This document shows positions 36,245 to 55,795 of a stretch of DNA of 64,000 bases, piece by piece (position 1 is the first letter of the stretch; each line of letters begins with the position of its first letter). This DNA comes from Pichia kudriavzevii (lineage: Eukaryota > Ascomycota > Pichiomycetes > Pichiales > Pichiaceae), in contig NC_042506.1 of assembly GCF_003054445.1 (NCBI RefSeq), positions 875,501-939,500 of the forward strand, written 5' to 3'. The notes beneath the pieces were generated by a model, which saw only the letters and a program-made list of their open reading frames with translations, had not been told where the DNA came from and searched no databases. Position numbers and translations under genes: made by a program.

Positions 36245-37948
36245 ATGCCGTACGGCCGTCGTCGAAACAATACAAACACAGACGAAGGTGGAGTCAAGGG
36301 CCCGTCTAGTGCGTTAACGTCTTTCCTTAGAGAACAGGGAATCAGCGCAGAACAAATTAGACTTCGATATGAACAATCCAAGAGACAAAAGGAGCCGGGT
36401 GGCACTACTGAAGTTGAAAGTGGCGTGGAGATTCCTGTCGAAGAGGTTACAAATAGGGATTTGGAGATCAAGATCAATACAGGATTGGATTCCGATGAGG
36501 AGGAAGTCGATTATGAAAAGCCTCTGAGTAAAAGACAGAGGTTGGAGCAAACGGTCAACGTCAGCTCTGGAACCGATTTGTACTGTATGGAATGTGACCA
36601 AGACTTTACGATATCGGTCTACTCGAAAAAAATGGAGAGAGACGGTAAGATTGGATACTTATGTCCATCTTGCTCGAAAATCCAGATAAGAAGGGAACGG
36701 TTGGCCAAAAGGCATGAAATTGAAGCTAGAAGACGTCGTAAGAAAATAGCGGCTGCACTACTAGACAAAAAACAGTTCAAACTACCTAGCTTGCAGGATT
36801 TTTGTATTAATGTGATAACTGAGAACATCAACAGTGTAGAAGCATTAGGAGAAATAGGTACTCATAATAAAATGAAAATATGCCGTATTTTGGCAAAGAA
36901 TAGGTCTCTTAACAATAAAACAATCACATTGTTTCTTGATGGAAATACAAAGAAATTGGAATTTTGGGACTGTTCCAAGATCGACAAAAATTCACTTGAT
37001 AAAATTGCCGTTTATTGTCCTAATTTAGAATCACTGACATTGAACATGTGTGGACAGTTGCATAATGATAACTTGCAATATTTTGGCTCCAAGTTGAATA
37101 ACCTGAAATCCTTCCATCTTAATGGGCCTTTTTTAATCAATGATAATGCTTGGCAGAGCTTCTTTGAAAGTAAAGTAGGAAAAAATTTGAAACAATTTAC
37201 CCTGATCAACACACACAGGTTCTCGAACGACTCCCTGGTTTGTCTTTTAGAGAATTGTGGAAATAATTTAGAATCCTTGACTTTATCAAGATTGGATTCA
37301 TTAGACTCCAAACCTGTTTTTGACTTACTGCCACATTTTCTTTCTAGTTTGAAACATTTGGAAATCTCTTACCCCCATTCTAAAAATCTCATTGATGACG
37401 ACCTAATAATCAATTTGTTGGCTGTGAATTGTGATAGTCTGGAATCTCTGAACCTCGACAGATGCTCTGACCTCACTGACCGATTTCTTACCGAAGGCTT
37501 AAAGCCATTCGGCTCTCATATTAGGAAACTCTCTCTCACAGATCTTGATCAAATTGACGACGCCGGGGTAGGTGTGTTGTTTGATGACTGGAAAATAAAC
37601 GGCGGCTTAACGGACATAAATCTCGAGAGATGTACTCTTTTGACTGATGATTCTATTTACAAGATGCTAAGTCATTCAAGCGAAACCCTTGTACGATTGA
37701 AACTGAATAGTGTCAAATTAATATCAAAATCACTATTCTCAAAATTATCAAGAAACACCACTTTCCCCTTGCTAACATTTCTTGACCTGGGATTTGTTCG
37801 CAGTGTGGATGATTCGGTATTGGCTATACTATCAAGAATCTGCCCTAAACTTGAAATACTGGAAGTATATGGCAACAACAGATGCACAGAACGGGCTTTG
37901 ATACGGGAAAACTTAACAGTCATTGGAAGACAAACTGATAGTATATAA
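36245..37948 (+). CDS. RAD7: RAD7, nucleotide excision repair damage-recognition protein
   Basis: This 567-residue protein (S. cerevisiae 565) starts with the conserved block VKGPSSALTSFLREQGIS and ends with the highly conserved VIGRQTDSI. Leucine-rich repeats cover about 210-560. Rad7 works with Rad16 in the global-genome repair complex and as a Cul3-type E3 with Elc1. A C4 zinc-ribbon-like motif lies at C114, C117, C140 and C143 (LYCMECDQDF...YLCPSC); fission yeast Rhp7 has such a motif, whereas from memory S. cerevisiae Rad7 lacks it. RAD23, a partner in the same pathway, lies 2.3 kb downstream. Confidence 0.95.
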   Translation: MPYGRRRNNTNTDEGGVKGPSSALTSFLREQGISAEQIRLRYEQSKRQKEPGGTTEVESGVEIPVEEVTNRDLEIKINTGLDSDEEEVDYEKPLSKRQRLEQTVNVSSGTDLYCMECDQDFTISVYSKKMERDGKIGYLCPSCSKIQIRRERLAKRHEIEARRRRKKIAAALLDKKQFKLPSLQDFCINVITENINSVEALGEIGTHNKMKICRILAKNRSLNNKTITLFLDGNTKKLEFWDCSKIDKNSLDKIAVYCPNLESLTLNMCGQLHNDNLQYFGSKLNNLKSFHLNGPFLINDNAWQSFFESKVGKNLKQFTLINTHRFSNDSLVCLLENCGNNLESLTLSRLDSLDSKPVFDLLPHFLSSLKHLEISYPHSKNLIDDDLIINLLAVNCDSLESLNLDRCSDLTDRFLTEGLKPFGSHIRKLSLTDLDQIDDAGVGVLFDDWKINGGLTDINLERCTLLTDDSIYKMLSHSSETLVRLKLNSVKLISKSLFSKLSRNTTFPLLTFLDLGFVRSVDDSVLAILSRICPKLEILEVYGNNRCTERALIRENLTVIGRQTDSI

Positions 37949-40266: not shown

Positions 40267-41343
40267 ATGCAAATTATTTTAAAGGACTTTAAGAAGGAGA
40301 AAATCCCTGTTGAAATTGAAGCTTCTGACAGCGTCTTGTCTGGTAAAGAAAAGTTAGCTTCAATCAAAAACTGTGACGTTGATCAAATAAAGTTTGTCTA
40401 CTCAGGTAAAATTTTACAAAATGACAAAACTTTCGAATCATTCAAAGTGAAAGAAGGTGACCAGATCATCTTCATGATTTCAAAGGCTAAGAAGGTGGAC
40501 CAGCCGGCCACTACTACTTCAGAAACTGCAGCTCCAACAACGTCAAATGAAAATACTCCAGCTGTAGACTCTGCAGCTTCAACACCAACCCCTGCAAATC
40601 CATCTGCTGAGGAAGTGTCTGAATTCACGGCATCGACATTCGCACAAGGCTCGGTAAGAGAAACTGCGGTACAGAATATCATGGCAATGGGATTCGAAAG
40701 ACCGCAAGTTGAAAGAGCTTTGCGTGCAGCGTTTAACAACCCTGATAGAGCAGTCGAATATTTATTGTCAGGTATTCCGCTTCCAGCAGAACCGGAGGAA
40801 TCTTCTGCCCCAGCTGCTGGACCTGTCAACTCTCCAACATCCGAAACGACCGCTGCTACTGAATCAACAGCCACACAAAATCCAGGAGAAAATCTCTTTG
40901 AACAGGCTGCTGCTGCGAATGCCGGAGGTGAAGAAGAAGCTAGTGGTGACATGATGAGTCAAGTCAGAGAAATCCTCCAAACACAACCAGAAATGGCCGA
41001 AGTTGTTTTGCAGCAACTAGCAGCATCCAATCCACAATTAGCTGAATTTATACAATCCAACCCAGAGGCATTCCTGAGATACATTACTGAGGGTGATCAG
41101 ACTGCTTTGGCTACTGCTCTGGGTGTCCCATCTGAATACATTGACGCTGAACAGGGCGGTTTAGAAGGTGAAGGTGAAGGTGGAGAAGGTTACCAAATTC
41201 AAATCACTCAAGAGGAGAGTGAAGCCATCGATAGGTTATGTGAATTGGGATTTGACAAGAACTTGGTCATTCAAGTGTACTTTGCTTGCGACAAGAATGA
41301 AGAAATGGCAGCAAATTTACTATTCACTGATCATGCGGACTAA
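40267..41343 (+). CDS. RAD23: RAD23, UBL-UBA repair and proteasome shuttle
   Basis: This 358-residue protein has the complete Rad23 order: a ubiquitin-like domain (1-75, [20 protein letters not shown]), an Ala/Thr/Pro linker, UBA1 (about 130-172, [20 protein letters not shown]), an XPC/Rad4-binding domain (about 205-275, [20 protein letters not shown]), a Gly/Glu linker and UBA2 (about 318-356, [18 protein letters not shown]). Rad23 stabilises Rad4 at DNA lesions and delivers ubiquitinated proteins to the proteasome. It is followed by convergent UTR4, the same neighbour and orientation as S. cerevisiae YEL037C-YEL038W. A perfect PACE precedes it. Confidence 0.97.
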
Positions 41344-50232: not shown

Positions 50233-51125
50233 TACTTTCTTTTTTTCTCTAACTCCCAATCCAAATTTGATATTTGATAGTAAGTAAGCCTAACAAAAAA
50301 TTGTGTATCTACAGTTCTGGGGGTATTTGTAAGTTTTGTACGAAAATTGAATGATCCTATGATGCTATAGGCATGATTTACAATAATCTAGGCAGACTAT
50401 TATCAGTAAGGAAATGATGTTATAAAAAAATTCTCAAAATAATAATAAAACAAAATAATAATAATAAATAATAATAATAAATAATAATGAAAAATAATAA
50501 TGAAAAATAATAATAAAAAATAATAGTAATAAAAAAAGGCTTCTCTAGGACGACAAATACTATGTCGTGCCGCAGCAACTGGGTTGTCGTGGTGCGGAAA
50601 TTTTTGCGTGTTTCTTGTTTCTTTTTTTTCTCTGAATGCGAAAAATCGTCACAAAAACAAGAGAAAGTTAATTATTATGGATCTGCGAAAAAATGGAGTC
50701 ACTTACAGCTCTTCCAACAAAAGCTTAATTAGACAAGACTACCAGCACATGGACATAATGTCCTTTCACAAGGTGGAATTCGGTGCAGAAAAAAAAATCC
50801 GGACCCGACATGTCTGAGCCGAGAGGAGCCGATTGTTGGTCTTAGAACTAAACACCACACTAGTCGTTTATGACTAAAATTTGGTTGCCCAGTCATATTT
50901 ATCATAGTCTTCCTGAAACTACATGCTAAGTATGCTCAAATAACAAAATTGCGTTTATAAATCTAGAAAAGTAGAATACATATAAGAAGTGAAACAAATA
51001 GTCCATCCAGGTCAAAATTGACGGCGGATAAAGCAAACCCAAATGAAAGCAGTTGAAGGTATATGGTAAAATGGAATCTTACTAAATGAAAAAAAAATGG
51101 AAGAGGAAAAAGGAAAAAAAGTGTT
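50233..51125. other. Intergenic BAS1-Ada-like gene with AAT microsatellite
   Basis: 893 bp of A/T-rich sequence. An imperfect (AAT)n microsatellite with AAAT variants spans about 50436-50540. No gene is recognised. Confidence 0.6.
50436..50540. repeat. Imperfect AAT/ATA microsatellite
   Basis: About 100 bp made of AAT units broken by AAAT and GAAAA interruptions, on the + strand, roughly 205-310 bp upstream of BAS1. Such tracts are length-variable. Confidence 0.85.
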
Positions 51126-52889
51126 TCAATTGATGAAAGTATTAATGTCTGCTAGATTGTTGTCTTCCTCCCACTGAATAGAGGTTAAATCTGATATTTT
51201 GTTTTCAAGCAAATTTTGTAATCTGAGTTGTTTCAGGAGACACTGATGCTCGTAATTTGTTGGATCTGTATACTTGAAACAGTCATCAAAATAATCCACT
51301 GAAGTAACATTGATTCTTGTGTCCGTATTAAAAGGATTTCCCCATTCGATATCGTCAGGTATATTATTTAAAGCACTAGCTGATTTGGGAAAGTTTTCCT
51401 CTCTAGAAGTATTAGAGCTGAACATGCTTTGGATCCCGTTATCCAGAGGATATTGTCTTGTTGGCTGCGTATTGATCGAGTCAAAGGCAACATAAGAAGC
51501 AGGTGCACTAAGACTTGTAGGAGATGCCGCATTTGCATCCACTAATGATGGCATCCTAGAAGAGTATTCGTTTGCATAATTTGAGAAAAACAAAGTTAAC
51601 TCTTGTTCTTGAGGTGATAGAAACAGCTCTGTTGAATGTGGTGAACTTTGAGGAAATCCTCTATTTGGTGAACTAAACACCTCATCGAAAAGCTGAGGTG
51701 ACTGCGGAGGCATTTTTGGTTCTTCGATATTCACATGTGAATTTAAACTTTGATTGTTGTTAACAAAATCATTGGTAATATAATTATACTGTATTGGAAC
51801 TGACGCTGGTACTGGTAACGGTACCGGCACTTGGATTGGCATTGGTACTGTAGATGGTGTGATGGTAGTGTCAATGTTTAACAAAAAGAGTGCACTACGT
51901 GACACCCTCTTCTTTGAACCATCCTTTGAAGAATCAGAAATAAAAGAAGGGTTGGCCAGTTTGGCGTTGACTATAATTGAAGAATCAGATACAAAACTAT
52001 GTGGCAAGGAATGTTTCTTGTGTTCTAAATATTCAAAACATCGATCCCCGTATTGTTTGGGTGTTATACCAGTCATATTCTTAAAAGTACGATGAAAATG
52101 CCAAGGACTCAGTTGTGACTTAGCAGCCAATTCTTTGAACCCCAATGCACCGCCTTTACGTTTATTTGTTTTTAATCTCTGATGTTGCATTATGAAAATG
52201 CCCTTCTCAACTCTATACGGGGACCACTGTGTTTCGTCATCACCAGGGGTCTTCTGATGCTCTTCAGTGTAACTGTATCTTCTAGAATATTCACTGCCTC
52301 CTTGCTGATCCATTTTTTTGATTGAATCATCTCTCCCCACCAATTTATCATTATATATAAATTGAAGTCCAAAGAGAGTGGACAGTGCAGCTAAAGCTAT
52401 ATGTCGGCATGCCATATCGATCATTTTGAGATGCTCTAGTTCGTTTGTTTGAGGAAGTTTATCGTTGTTTGTAAATTGCAAAAGCTTCTTCTGCAACCTT
52501 GCGTTTTTTATTTGCATTATTGCCTGCTTGTAAAACTGCTGGCCTTTTTTGATAAGAGGAGGAGTAAATCCTATCTTCTTATTGACGGCATCTATTGTAG
52601 AGAACAACAATTCCAAATCGATTGTAACAAAGTTTTCTCTTAATATGTAGTCAGATTTCTCATTCAAATTGGGCAAACAGTGATGGCAAAGTCTGAAGTC
52701 TTTTTCTAGGGCCTCCTCAACTGTATCGACAAAGATAATGGACTTAGAATCTTCGTCACTGAAACTGAACCCACAGTTGGGTCTGCAGCATACATTCAAG
52801 CCAATATGGCACACGAAAAACTTATCAGCAGCAAACGGGTCCTTGTTCTTGAAGGCCTGCCACTTTGAGGTGTCACTCAAATAGAACAT
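51126..52889 (-). CDS. Ada zinc domain + AraC helix-turn-helix regulator
   Basis: This 587-residue protein starts with an Ada-type metal-binding domain: SKWQAFKNKDPFAADKFF, then CRPNC (C35, C39) and CHHC (C68, C71). The spacing equals that of E. coli Ada (C38, C42, C69, C72), where the first Cys takes methyl groups from DNA phosphotriesters. An AraC-family helix-turn-helix follows at about 248-285 (ELAAKSQLSPWHFHRTFKNM, TGITPKQYG), very like the AraC part of bacterial Ada. There is no O6-methylguanine transferase domain. The last ~280 residues are Ser/Pro-rich and disordered. A role as an alkylation-responsive transcription factor is inference. The frame is open to an ATG at 53123, but that extension is hydrophobic and unlike Ada; the ATG at 52889 fits. 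Confidence 0.88.
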   Translation of the reverse strand: MFYLSDTSKWQAFKNKDPFAADKFFVCHIGLNVCCRPNCGFSFSDEDSKSIIFVDTVEEALEKDFRLCHHCLPNLNEKSDYILRENFVTIDLELLFSTIDAVNKKIGFTPPLIKKGQQFYKQAIMQIKNARLQKKLLQFTNNDKLPQTNELEHLKMIDMACRHIALAALSTLFGLQFIYNDKLVGRDDSIKKMDQQGGSEYSRRYSYTEEHQKTPGDDETQWSPYRVEKGIFIMQHQRLKTNKRKGGALGFKELAAKSQLSPWHFHRTFKNMTGITPKQYGDRCFEYLEHKKHSLPHSFVSDSSIIVNAKLANPSFISDSSKDGSKKRVSRSALFLLNIDTTITPSTVPMPIQVPVPLPVPASVPIQYNYITNDFVNNNQSLNSHVNIEEPKMPPQSPQLFDEVFSSPNRGFPQSSPHSTELFLSPQEQELTLFFSNYANEYSSRMPSLVDANAASPTSLSAPASYVAFDSINTQPTRQYPLDNGIQSMFSSNTSREENFPKSASALNNIPDDIEWGNPFNTDTRINVTSVDYFDDCFKYTDPTNYEHQCLLKQLRLQNLLENKISDLTSIQWEEDNNLADINTFIN

Positions 52890-52936
52890 TGTGTGTTTAT
52901 CTTGTTGTTGTTTCGTAGATAGTCTATGATTGTCTC

Positions 52937-53138
52937 CTACAGAAAAATAGGACAAGAGAATAGAAGTTAAGTTAGTCAAGCACAACGTCAAACTCCAAAG
53001 CATCCATTGGGGGAGATGCAATTCCGAGAAAGAAAAAAAAAAAGAGCATGGAACAGTGTTCTTATAAAAAAAAGGTTGGATACACCAGCACCTTATCCAC
53101 AATACAATAAGAAGCTTCATCATGGACTTATAACTTAC
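52937..53138 (-). other. Possible 5' leader intron of the Ada-like gene
   Basis: On the minus strand there is GTAAGT (53138 downwards), a GACTAAC branch-like site (about 52972-52978) and TTTTTCTGTAG ending at 52937, defining a 202-bp intron 47 bases before the chosen ATG. Splicing would remove the hydrophobic in-frame extension and leave a short leader. The branch site differs from TACTAAC by one base. Confidence 0.4.
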
Positions 53139-55795
53139 AATACATTGGGAAATTCATGAACAATCTGCAGAGATCTCCGTGCCTCAATACGGTAAGTTCC
53201 TATGCAATGTTATACTTTGCAATTTCCTAATGTAATCCAGATTTTTTAGCAAAGACAAAACTTTCGCGATGGGCGTCTTCTACTAAACCGCAAGATCTAC
53301 TACGCGGGCAGAAATTCCGCATGCATCAATTATGGTTCTTATACAGCAAGTTCTGCTTTTTTCGCGGATTACTGCCCTTTAAATGCATCTGATTTGCCAG
53401 AAATGTAAACTATTATATTTACCACACTAAACATTACCATGTTGCTGCAACCACTAATATGCTGCACTCTAAAAGACAATGGTTCCCAATGTGTGTCTCC
53501 TATAGTAGTCAAAAACTGCTGATACAACCAACATTATTTCTTGTTTAGAATTCTATTGAACTACACAGAACCGTACCATATACATGTACGTGCAGTTTTG
53601 AGTCGGCGAAAAATCTACTAAGGTTGTATAATAGAAAGTAGTGTTCTACTCGGTTGATGCACATAGGATAAGGGAACTACAGAACAACTCATCTAAGCTT
53701 CATCAAACATGACGATGTTGAGAAGGTTAGAAGTAGAATTACCTGCACACTATTTAGCTTTGGCAAACGCGCTCATATCGAAGCTTAAATGTGTTGTTTT
53801 TTCTTGGCGGATACTCTTCGGTTTATGAACTTATCCTGAAAACTCGGTCCAGCATCTCCTTGGTGAGATTTTTTCTCGCCCGCATGAAGACACTAATTTT
53901 ACACTTAGCCCCCAACAGAATTCAGAATCCTTATTTCCGGTAGATTTTCTCTCTCCCCCCAAACAAGTATAAATGCCGTAGCGACGCGCATGTTCACATG
54001 ACCGCTGAGACATATATAAGGTTAGCAAAAGTTTTTCTACATGGGACATTTTCATACCGCTCTAGTAACCAACAAGAGGCCAAGTCGATATCCGAATACT
54101 TGCAGTTTCTTGACAATAGGAGGTGTCTCGGTAATGAATGGAACAACCAAATAAAATATGCTCTACGAAGTACGGATTTAAGTCTGCCAATTTAGATACA
54201 GTCAGGTTACACTTGCATGCATCCACAATAAACGCTAAATTTATGGTACCATTAGTTTGCTCTAGGTTTGGTGCATATAAAAAAGGTTTTTGTTTTTTTC
54301 TCTTTAGAGGAAGACTGTAGTCCGACGGTAGATAAAGCGTTAGAGATGGTAAAATGGGAAAGAATTTAAACTTTCTCAAAAGATACCTTTAGGTTAATTC
54401 TCAATCAAGCGTGTGGGGCTTGTTCTCTGATCTTTCTCGCTACTGAAACATCTCATGGGCACAGGTTTAGCGTATGGCATGTATAACCACCAATACCAAA
54501 CAAAAAAAAGAAAAGAGGAAGATCCTTTTTTTCTCTTAGACTCGCACAAGCCTCACGCTGTTCCAGACTTGGCCCGCTGTCAGCCAGTTTGATATTTGCA
54601 GATCTCGATTATCTTGGCTGAATCCGGTATCTTACCTCCAATGGGTTTTAGGTTACATGGATCTAAATGAACGATAAAATGCAGGGGGGGCGAATATACT
54701 CCAAATTTAACTCTACACATGTGGTAACTAGTCTTGCTGTCAACGTTGAGCAAATGACGGGGATTATCACACATGGACATGAAGCACACCATGTTACCAC
54801 TCTCAAAGTTTAATTACAATAATGATGTTTTGGTTGTTAACCTAAATCTGCTCTTAGAGATTATTCACTATATAACTATTGTTCTTAAAGAAGGTGAAAT
54901 TATATAGCGTAGAAGTGGCGTTTTTTTTTCTCTTATTATTGACATCTGAACTTTTGGAGGTTAATACTAATAGAAAAATGCATCGATACTCTAGTGGCTG
55001 AAACATATATCAACTCTGCATAATTGTAATTTCTTTGTGGAATGTGTACAAAGCCCATCAGCCTCCTTCTCATCAATTTTTTTCTTGCAAGGACAATCCT
55101 AGTTTGTGAGGTAATTTTCTTCTCCATGTTGGTTATTGAAAATGGGATTTGCACCTAGTTATAGCACTTTCATTTTTTTTTATTATATTTATGTACTATT
55201 TCTAAAAGCCGGGATTTGCATACTCTCCTATCTTCACAATTCCGAAGAATGTCATGGAACCAGCTATTTGCTCAAATATGAGAAAATTCTTACAGCATGT
55301 AACATACTAGTAACATACTCGCAAGGCATGAGAACAGATGTACCAATTAAACAGGTGGATCTGACAATCGCTGAGATCTCAAGTCTAGAAGTATGGTACG
55401 AAAAGCAAAAGGAGGATATCTAATAGATTTCCGCCTTTTCTGATTTGTATAAAAGAAATTACAAAAGCTGACTAGAAAAATGGTGTTCCTTTTGTGGGTG
55501 CCCCGTATGTGATTGTAGATTCAGTCACAAATTACCATGTACATTGGTAATGTTTTGTCGAAGCAATCTCCACCTTTCGACAAATGGATACTTTACCTTA
55601 TTCTTTTATATGCGGTTTACATGAAAAAAAAAATTGAAGAAAAAAAAATGGCTAGTAATTGTAGGCGCGACATCTCAGAAGCTACAGATGAAGAAAAACG
55701 AATTTGTGAAACACCAGGATACATTTTACCAAGTTTAACAGAAACGGAGGTGACGCAGATTCCTTTGAAGGAAACCACTTGGCAAAGGAACTGAC
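53139..55795. other. Gene-poor stretch between Ada-like gene and CTK1
   Basis: About 2.7 kb with only short frames (for example 53998-54195 +, 54580-54792 -, 55142-55423 +), none recognised. Some read like scraps of protein rather than random sequence, so an eroded gene is possible, but I cannot name one. A CGCGAAAA core (as TTTTCGCG) lies near 53359. No tRNA or transposon is seen. Confidence 0.4.

What the first reader, a model, noticed from the sequence alone, without database searches (positions are those of the whole stretch)
51126..52889. Bacterial-type Ada sensor fused to AraC HTH in a yeast nucleus
Four cysteines with the exact E. coli Ada spacing are followed by an AraC HTH nearly identical in pattern to Ada's, then a eukaryote-style disordered tail, but no alkyltransferase domain. 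This implies ancient transfer from bacteria and reuse as a fungal transcription factor that may sense methyl-phosphotriester damage. AraC-type regulators are rare in eukaryotes.
Basis: partly seen in the sequence, partly recalled or inferred. Interest (0 to 1): 0.75.

Follow-up and report, generated by a model that had tools for sequence, protein, structure and literature searches.

The report
Yeast regulator built from bacterial Ada
A yeast gene encodes a probable gene regulator made from half of a bacterial DNA-damage sensor; related proteins are common in fungi, but the yeast branch seems to have kept one DNA-reading part and lost the surface that recognises damaged DNA.

Summary
Mostly right observation. 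An intronless 587-codon gene (minus strand, 52889..51126) carries an Ada-type Zn(Cys)4 domain, one AraC-type helix-turn-helix (HTH) and a largely disordered tail, with no alkyltransferase. Corrections: the cysteine pairs are 28 residues apart (26 in 63 of 63 bacterial Adas measured), and only the first of AraC's two HTHs is present (HTH2: 0 of 86 yeast-clade and 0 of 120 filamentous relatives; 32 of 32 held-out bacterial Adas). It is not a one-off: named orthologs span Saccharomycotina, Ada-Zn + HTH proteins are common in filamentous ascomycetes, and one is published in a basidiomycete (SaraC). What my searches did not find in print is a lineage split: the yeast clade keeps Ada's B-box-reading residues (W/H/R, 85-86 of 86) but lost both A-box-reading arginines (0 of 74 keep both) and the domain's positive charge; the filamentous sample, biased by my probe, does the reverse. 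The yeast protein is probably a sequence-specific regulator whose zinc domain no longer handles methyl-phosphotriesters as Ada does. Alkylation sensing is weakened, not excluded. New variant of a known kind.

The parts
51126..52889 (-). Whole gene: Ada-Zn + single AraC-type HTH + disordered tail, 587 codons and stop
   Evidence: relatives start at the same Met
52671..52865 (-). Ada-type zinc domain (residues 9-73): C35-x3-C39-x28-C68-x2-C71; S42 and H70 stand where E. coli Ada has A-box-reading R45 and R71
   Evidence: Pfam; PDB alignment; residue roles from PMC4437013 passages
52425..52652 (-). Linker (residues 80-155), mostly helical in the model, similar in the Pichiaceae relatives shown; the three bacterial Adas in the alignment lack it
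52374..52424 (-). Helix (residues 156-172) with the ACRHIA motif, counterpart of the first helix of Ada's HTH1 domain
52161..52373 (-). Insert (residues 173-243) inside the HTH1 domain, variable in length across the family
52041..52160 (-). Basic arm (R/K)(R/K)GG and HTH1 (residues 244-283); recognition residues W263, H264, R267 = E. coli F114, H115, R118 (B box)
51129..51914 (-). C-terminal tail (residues 326-587), mostly low confidence
51180..51263 (-). Predicted C-terminal helix (residues 543-570), similar in the Pichia-type relatives shown

Best explanation
It is a yeast transcription factor of an Ada-derived family. It binds DNA with a single AraC-type HTH that keeps Ada's B-box-reading residues, helped by a yeast-specific basic arm. 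The Zn(Cys)4 domain still folds around its metal but no longer binds the DNA backbone or the A box as Ada does, so it is most likely not a methyl-phosphotriester repair or sensing domain. It now serves as a structural or protein-contact module, or as a sensor of something else. The disordered tail would contact the transcription machinery. Shown: domains, fold match, conservation pattern, absence of HTH2 and AGT. Inferred: DNA binding, a GCAA-like target, direction of regulation, metal binding, fate of the zinc domain.
For: HTH1 is nearly invariant: 85 of 85 rows keep F251, L254, A255, S261, W263, F265, R267, F269, T276, P277, K278, Y280 and C284, including members without the zinc domain. B-box positions: W 86/86, H 85/86, R 86/86. 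A-box positions, counted from the cysteines: R or K at the R45 site 5/74, R at the R71 site 1/74, both 0/74, against R or K 71/71 and R 71/71 in bacteria. Net charge of the zinc domain: median -1 (range -8 to +4, n=72), window -3; bacteria +5 (2 to 9, n=63); filamentous fungi +8 (6 to 10, n=97). Loop length is 26 in 63/63 bacteria and 97/97 filamentous sequences measured, but varies in the yeast clade, 28 in 54/72. Each fungal group is one side of a branch at 100/100.
Against: All four cysteines are kept in 73 of 85 rows and the other 12 lack the domain or most of it, with no partial loss. That is stricter than a dispensable relic would show and fits a retained thiolate function. The arginine of CRPxC is kept in 69 of 74 rows. 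The R45 site was counted by position, and 28 of 74 yeast-clade loops have some R or K within five residues of the second cysteine, so a shifted arginine is not excluded. No DNA-binding, localisation or expression data. The tail showed no significant acidic/hydrophobic cluster (window shuffle p 0.58; 11 of 81 tails at p <= 0.05). The gene's own 2.9-kb upstream region has no excess of GCAA/TTGC (27 seen, 27.6 expected).
Confidence: 0.55

Rival explanations
1. It works as Ada does: Cys35 takes a methyl group from a methyl-phosphotriester, lowering the negative charge of the zinc-thiolate centre, and the protein then binds promoters of alkylation-repair genes.
For: Four cysteines and CRPxC kept; fold match to methylated N-Ada on DNA; the natural protein is close to the N-Ada + HTH1 fragment in the 1u8b structure; an AlkB-like gene exists in the same genome.
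Against: A-box arginines and net positive charge lost across the yeast clade; 10 of 85 relatives, five of them Yarrowia-type, keep the HTH with no zinc domain in the alignment (missing exons not excluded); no Ada-like operator AATN6GCAA upstream (0 in 2.9 kb; 17 in the whole window, both strands).
Confidence: 0.2
2. Direct electrophile sensor: the zinc-thiolate centre reacts with a diffusible alkylating or other electrophilic compound rather than with DNA, and the modification changes HTH binding or a partner contact.
For: Strict cysteine conservation while the DNA surface decayed; [quoted passage not shown]
Against: No ligand, no target genes, no regulated neighbour known; strict cysteine conservation is equally expected of a structural zinc site.
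Confidence: 0.22
3. The protein is not a transcription factor (pseudogene, contaminant, or a non-DNA-binding relic).
For: No functional data.
Against: Open frame, a chromosomal locus among yeast genes, conservation of HTH1 across the clade.
Confidence: 0.03

Closest known systems
E. coli Ada (N-Ada20 + C-Ada19)
   Same: Zn(Cys)4 domain followed by AraC-type HTH1; B-box residues (F/W114, H115, R118); fold match to 1u8b.
   Different: No HTH2, no AGT domain, loop of 28 not 26, A-box arginines lost, domain not positively charged, insert inside the HTH1 domain, long disordered tail.
Bacillus AdaA-type regulators (recalled, not retrieved here)
   Same: Zinc domain + AraC HTH without AGT.
   Different: Recalled to have a full two-HTH AraC domain; the yeast protein has one HTH.
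Filamentous ascomycete Ada-Zn + HTH proteins (P0091-P0210)
   Same: Zinc domain + HTH1 only, no HTH2, no AGT, low-complexity tail in those read.
   Different: They keep A-box arginines and positive charge but have other B-box-site residues (R/Y/K); no insert and no basic arm in those read; most about 265-320 aa. HTH counts are biased by the probe.
SaraC of Stereum hirsutum (PMC9769804; abstract, introduction, phylogeny section and discussion read)
   Different: Basidiomycete; reported DNA-demethylating activity and secondary-metabolism effect on overexpression; its sequence was not compared here.
Cada2 of Caulobacter (PMC10957082; passages)
   Same: Keeps Ada's B-box HTH without an A-box-reading domain.
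   Different: Has an AGT domain that is its methylation sensor; lacks the four-cysteine domain.

Membership tests
Bifunctional Ada (NCBIfam NF011964) | Score over the equivalog cut-off | tested here: not met
   53.8 bits against 345
Bifunctional Ada (NCBIfam NF011964) | C-terminal AGT domain with PCHR | tested here: not met
   No Pfam AGT match; 0 of 86 yeast-clade proteins
Bifunctional Ada (NCBIfam NF011964) | Methyl transfer from phosphotriester to the first cysteine | not testable with these tools
   Cysteine present; A-box arginines and charge lost
Ada zinc domain (Pfam PF02805) | Score over gathering cut-off and four cysteines | tested here: met
   54.1 bits against 23; C35, C39, C68, C71
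AraC/XylS family | HTH1 related to AraC | tested here: met
   86 of 86 match an HTH1 profile from bacterial Ada; PF00165 E 1.2e-5 but 25.7 bits, just under its cut-off of 26.6
AraC/XylS family | Two HTHs in one domain | tested here: not met
   HTH2 profile: 0 of 86; held-out bacteria 32 of 32; PF12833 matched only over positions 1-30 of 80, below cut-off
Ascomycete Ada-Zn + single-HTH proteins | Zinc domain + HTH1, no HTH2, no AGT | tested here: met
Ascomycete Ada-Zn + single-HTH proteins | Common ancestry of yeast and filamentous members to the exclusion of bacteria | tested here: inconclusive
   Free tree does not join them; held-together tree fits 15 log units better, AU p 0.775; 109 columns

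The most novel reading that the evidence does not exclude
Ascomycetes inherited one truncated Ada (zinc domain + HTH1) and the two lineages kept opposite halves of its DNA-reading surface: filamentous fungi the damage and A-box half, budding yeasts the B-box half. In yeasts the intact zinc-thiolate centre was freed from DNA and became a sensor of diffusible electrophiles that controls a yeast-wide regulon.
Probability: 0.15. Interest if true: 0.75.

Novelty: new variant of a known kind. Interest (0 to 1): 0.5.

Why it matters
If true, a bacterial suicide repair sensor was converted into an ordinary eukaryotic transcription factor by dropping one HTH and the alkyltransferase, then parting with the damage-reading surface while keeping the promoter-reading one. 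That gives a clear case of an AraC-type HTH working alone in a nucleus, and a direct prediction of its DNA motif (GCAA-like) that can be tested in laboratory yeasts. It also warns that the database name 'methylphosphotriester-DNA--protein-cysteine methyltransferase', which some members carry (P0004, P0037), is probably wrong for the yeast clade.

Tried and rejected
Contamination or horizontal transfer just into this yeast: rejected, named orthologs span Saccharomycotina and the locus sits among yeast genes.

A companion alkyltransferase elsewhere in the genome: none found with PF01035 (controls 14 of 14), TIGR00589 (14 of 14) or a bacterial AGT protein. This is inconclusive: PF00730 found only one gene (NTG1-like by my reading) and OGG_N found nothing, so the search probably misses yeast genes that one would expect. 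PF12833 found nothing in the genome, not even this gene.

Autoregulation: GCAA/TTGC not enriched upstream (27 against 27.6 +- 5.4) and no AATN6GCAA there (17 in the whole window). Acidic activation domain in the tail: not significant for the window protein (p 0.58; 11 of 81 tails at p <= 0.05).

A first filter for bacterial sequences lost 28 of 80 loci, and its HTH2 pattern was useless (1 of 52 bacteria); profile searches replaced both, recovering all 80 loci. The profiles used 65 of the 80 (33 to build, 27 of them for the zinc profile; 32 to test); 15 were left out because my pattern missed them. The zinc profile found 32 of 32 bacteria, 72 of 86 yeast-clade and 120 of 120 filamentous proteins. 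For the tree, 57 of 289 sequences were dropped because my motif patterns missed them (20 bacterial, 12 of these without the cysteine motif; 23 filamentous; 14 yeast-clade; 40 of the 57 were printed), and 91 of the 232 left were used. In one search, 12 of 83 bacteria and 12 of 86 yeast-clade proteins had no zinc motif and are not in those counts; 7 bacteria and 4 filamentous sequences had no HTH matched by the pattern. The 85-row alignment left out P0002 (the window's own longer frame) and P0076.

Literature: locus-name searches for the Yarrowia and Komagataella orthologs gave nothing; 'Ada_Zn_binding' + fungi gave the SaraC paper and a cyanobacterial database paper; methylphosphotriester + fungal gave 3 papers, of which only SaraC bears on this by its listing. 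Other listings. Passages looked at without use here: PMC7230313, PMC10779285. The library holds open-licence papers only.

Full report
What is there. The minus strand of the window holds one open frame with a 587-codon gene at 52889..51126. The frame is open up to 53123, but the nearest relatives in the alignment start where Met 52889 lies. Pfam finds Ada_Zn_binding (E 1.6e-14, residues 9-73) and HTH_AraC (E 1.2e-5, residues 252-280, just under its cut-off). Among solved structures only E. coli Ada matches in earnest, best E 3.3e-9, in both domains. The genome around the window has 10,791,929 bases in 5 contigs, and one such gene was found. Its size and contig number fit Pichia kudriavzevii as I recall that genome, but no tool named the organism, so that is my inference. 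The flanking genes are ordinary yeast genes: a Myb-type factor, a protein kinase, Dus, Utp21, PRP39 and others.

The spacing is C-x3-C-x28-C-x2-C. E. coli and 63 of 63 bacterial sequences measured have x26. The AraC part is only HTH1. A profile of the bacterial second HTH finds 32 of 32 held-out bacterial Adas, 0 of 86 yeast-clade proteins and 0 of 120 filamentous ones. An AGT profile gives the same 32, 0 and 0, while an HTH1 profile finds 32 of 32, 86 of 86 and 120 of 120. The counterpart of the first helix of the HTH1 domain (MACRHIA) is separated from the rest by an insert whose length differs widely between members.

The family. One search gave 65 proteins: the window's own, three bacterial-type Adas with AGT domains (P0064-P0066), and 61 that I place in the yeast clade by sequence. 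Those with names are Ogataea, Komagataella, Pachysolen, Ambrosiozyma, [Candida] boidinii and arabinofermentans, Pichia inconspicua, Wickerhamomyces, Saccharomycopsis and Yarrowia; many are unnamed. One search added Brettanomyces, Blastobotrys and others. No Saccharomyces or Candida albicans-type name appeared, but only the 7,995 and 7,997 best candidates were scored, so their absence is suggestive only. Search 3, with a typed probe, gave 2,095 proteins at E <= 1e-8. The best 120 were listed; their precomputed domains include Ada_Zn and no AGT, and every organism named is a fungus, of the Pleosporales as I recall them. In the yeast alignment of 85 rows, 73 keep all four cysteines. The other 12 have no such domain (10), begin inside it (P0049) or do not align there (P0056). 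Whether these are true losses or missed exons I could not test.

The key comparison. A review's figure legend states that in E. coli Ada R45 and R71 read the A box, and F114, H115 and R118 the B box; its text says that methylation of C38 reduces repulsion from DNA phosphates (PMC4437013, passages). I mapped these positions by the alignment. Bacteria with the zinc motif (71 of 83): R45 site R 67, K 4; R71 site R 71. Filamentous sample: 120 of 120 R at both. Yeast clade with the motif (74 of 86): R or K 5 and R 1, with none keeping both; 28 of the 74 do have some R or K close after the second cysteine. B-box sites: bacteria F/Y/W 66, H 75 and R 76 of 76; yeast clade W 86, H 85, R 86 of 86; filamentous sample R 116, Y 116 and K 115 of 116. 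Median net charge of the zinc domain is +5 in bacteria, +8 in the filamentous sample and -1 in the yeast clade, with the window at -3. So the yeast clade kept the B-box half and lost the A-box half. The filamentous sample shows the reverse, with the warning that my probe favoured its HTH type.

Reading. The yeast protein most likely binds DNA through HTH1 alone, with a basic (R/K)(R/K)GG arm and possibly as a dimer or with partners (inferred). Its zinc domain lacks the surface by which Ada holds a DNA backbone, so methyl-phosphotriester repair is unlikely. The unbroken conservation of the cysteines leaves two possibilities that sequence cannot separate: a structural site, or a thiolate sensor of something other than phosphotriesters.

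Origin. A tree of 91 sequences and 109 columns gives yeast and filamentous groups at 100/100 each and draws the filamentous one among the bacteria. Holding the two fungal groups together raised the likelihood by 15 units (AU p 0.775), and bacteria as one clade was also not rejected (p 0.632). A single acquisition in an ascomycete ancestor is therefore possible, as the shared lack of HTH2 and AGT suggests, but not shown.

What is known. SaraC of Stereum hirsutum is a published fungal Ada_Zn + HTH_AraC protein. I read its abstract, introduction, phylogeny section and discussion. Its tree has basidiomycete, bacterial and ascomycete clades. 'AraC type' is a listed class in two fungal factor surveys (PMC5470089 and PMC8306183, passages). 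I found no paper on the yeast clade or on the A-box/B-box split in the searches, of which I saw listings and the passages named here.

Noticed in passing
L014, L024, L058, L066-L069, L073, L078 (Pseudomonas), L077 (Teredinibacter): Bacterial Adas whose zinc cysteines are partly lost (in the Pseudomonas ones serine stands at the second and third sites) while the first cysteine stays and the Ada profile match runs to its C-terminal end; 12 of 80 loci lack the full motif, one of them (L063) a fragment. The sensor seems to have died in these too.
   Followed up: partly
L083:1234-2670 (-): An AlkB-like 2OG-Fe(II) oxygenase of 478 aa in the same genome (PF13532, E 2.1e-24), with a cysteine-rich C-terminus; S. 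cerevisiae is recalled to lack AlkB.
   Followed up: partly
window 36245-37948 and 40267-41343: A Rad7/rhp7-like gene and a RAD23-like gene (nucleotide excision repair, by their Pfam domains) span about 5 kb, about 10 kb from the Ada-like gene.
   Followed up: no
window 52890-55795: A 2.9-kb stretch upstream of the gene with no separate ORF of 150 codons or more from ATG.
   Followed up: partly
L071: A MAG titled Klebsiella pneumoniae whose Ada falls, weakly supported, beside Comamonadaceae in the tree, so the title looks doubtful.
   Followed up: no
window about 50435-50535: A run of AAT-rich repeats between the Myb-type gene and the Ada-like gene.
   Followed up: no
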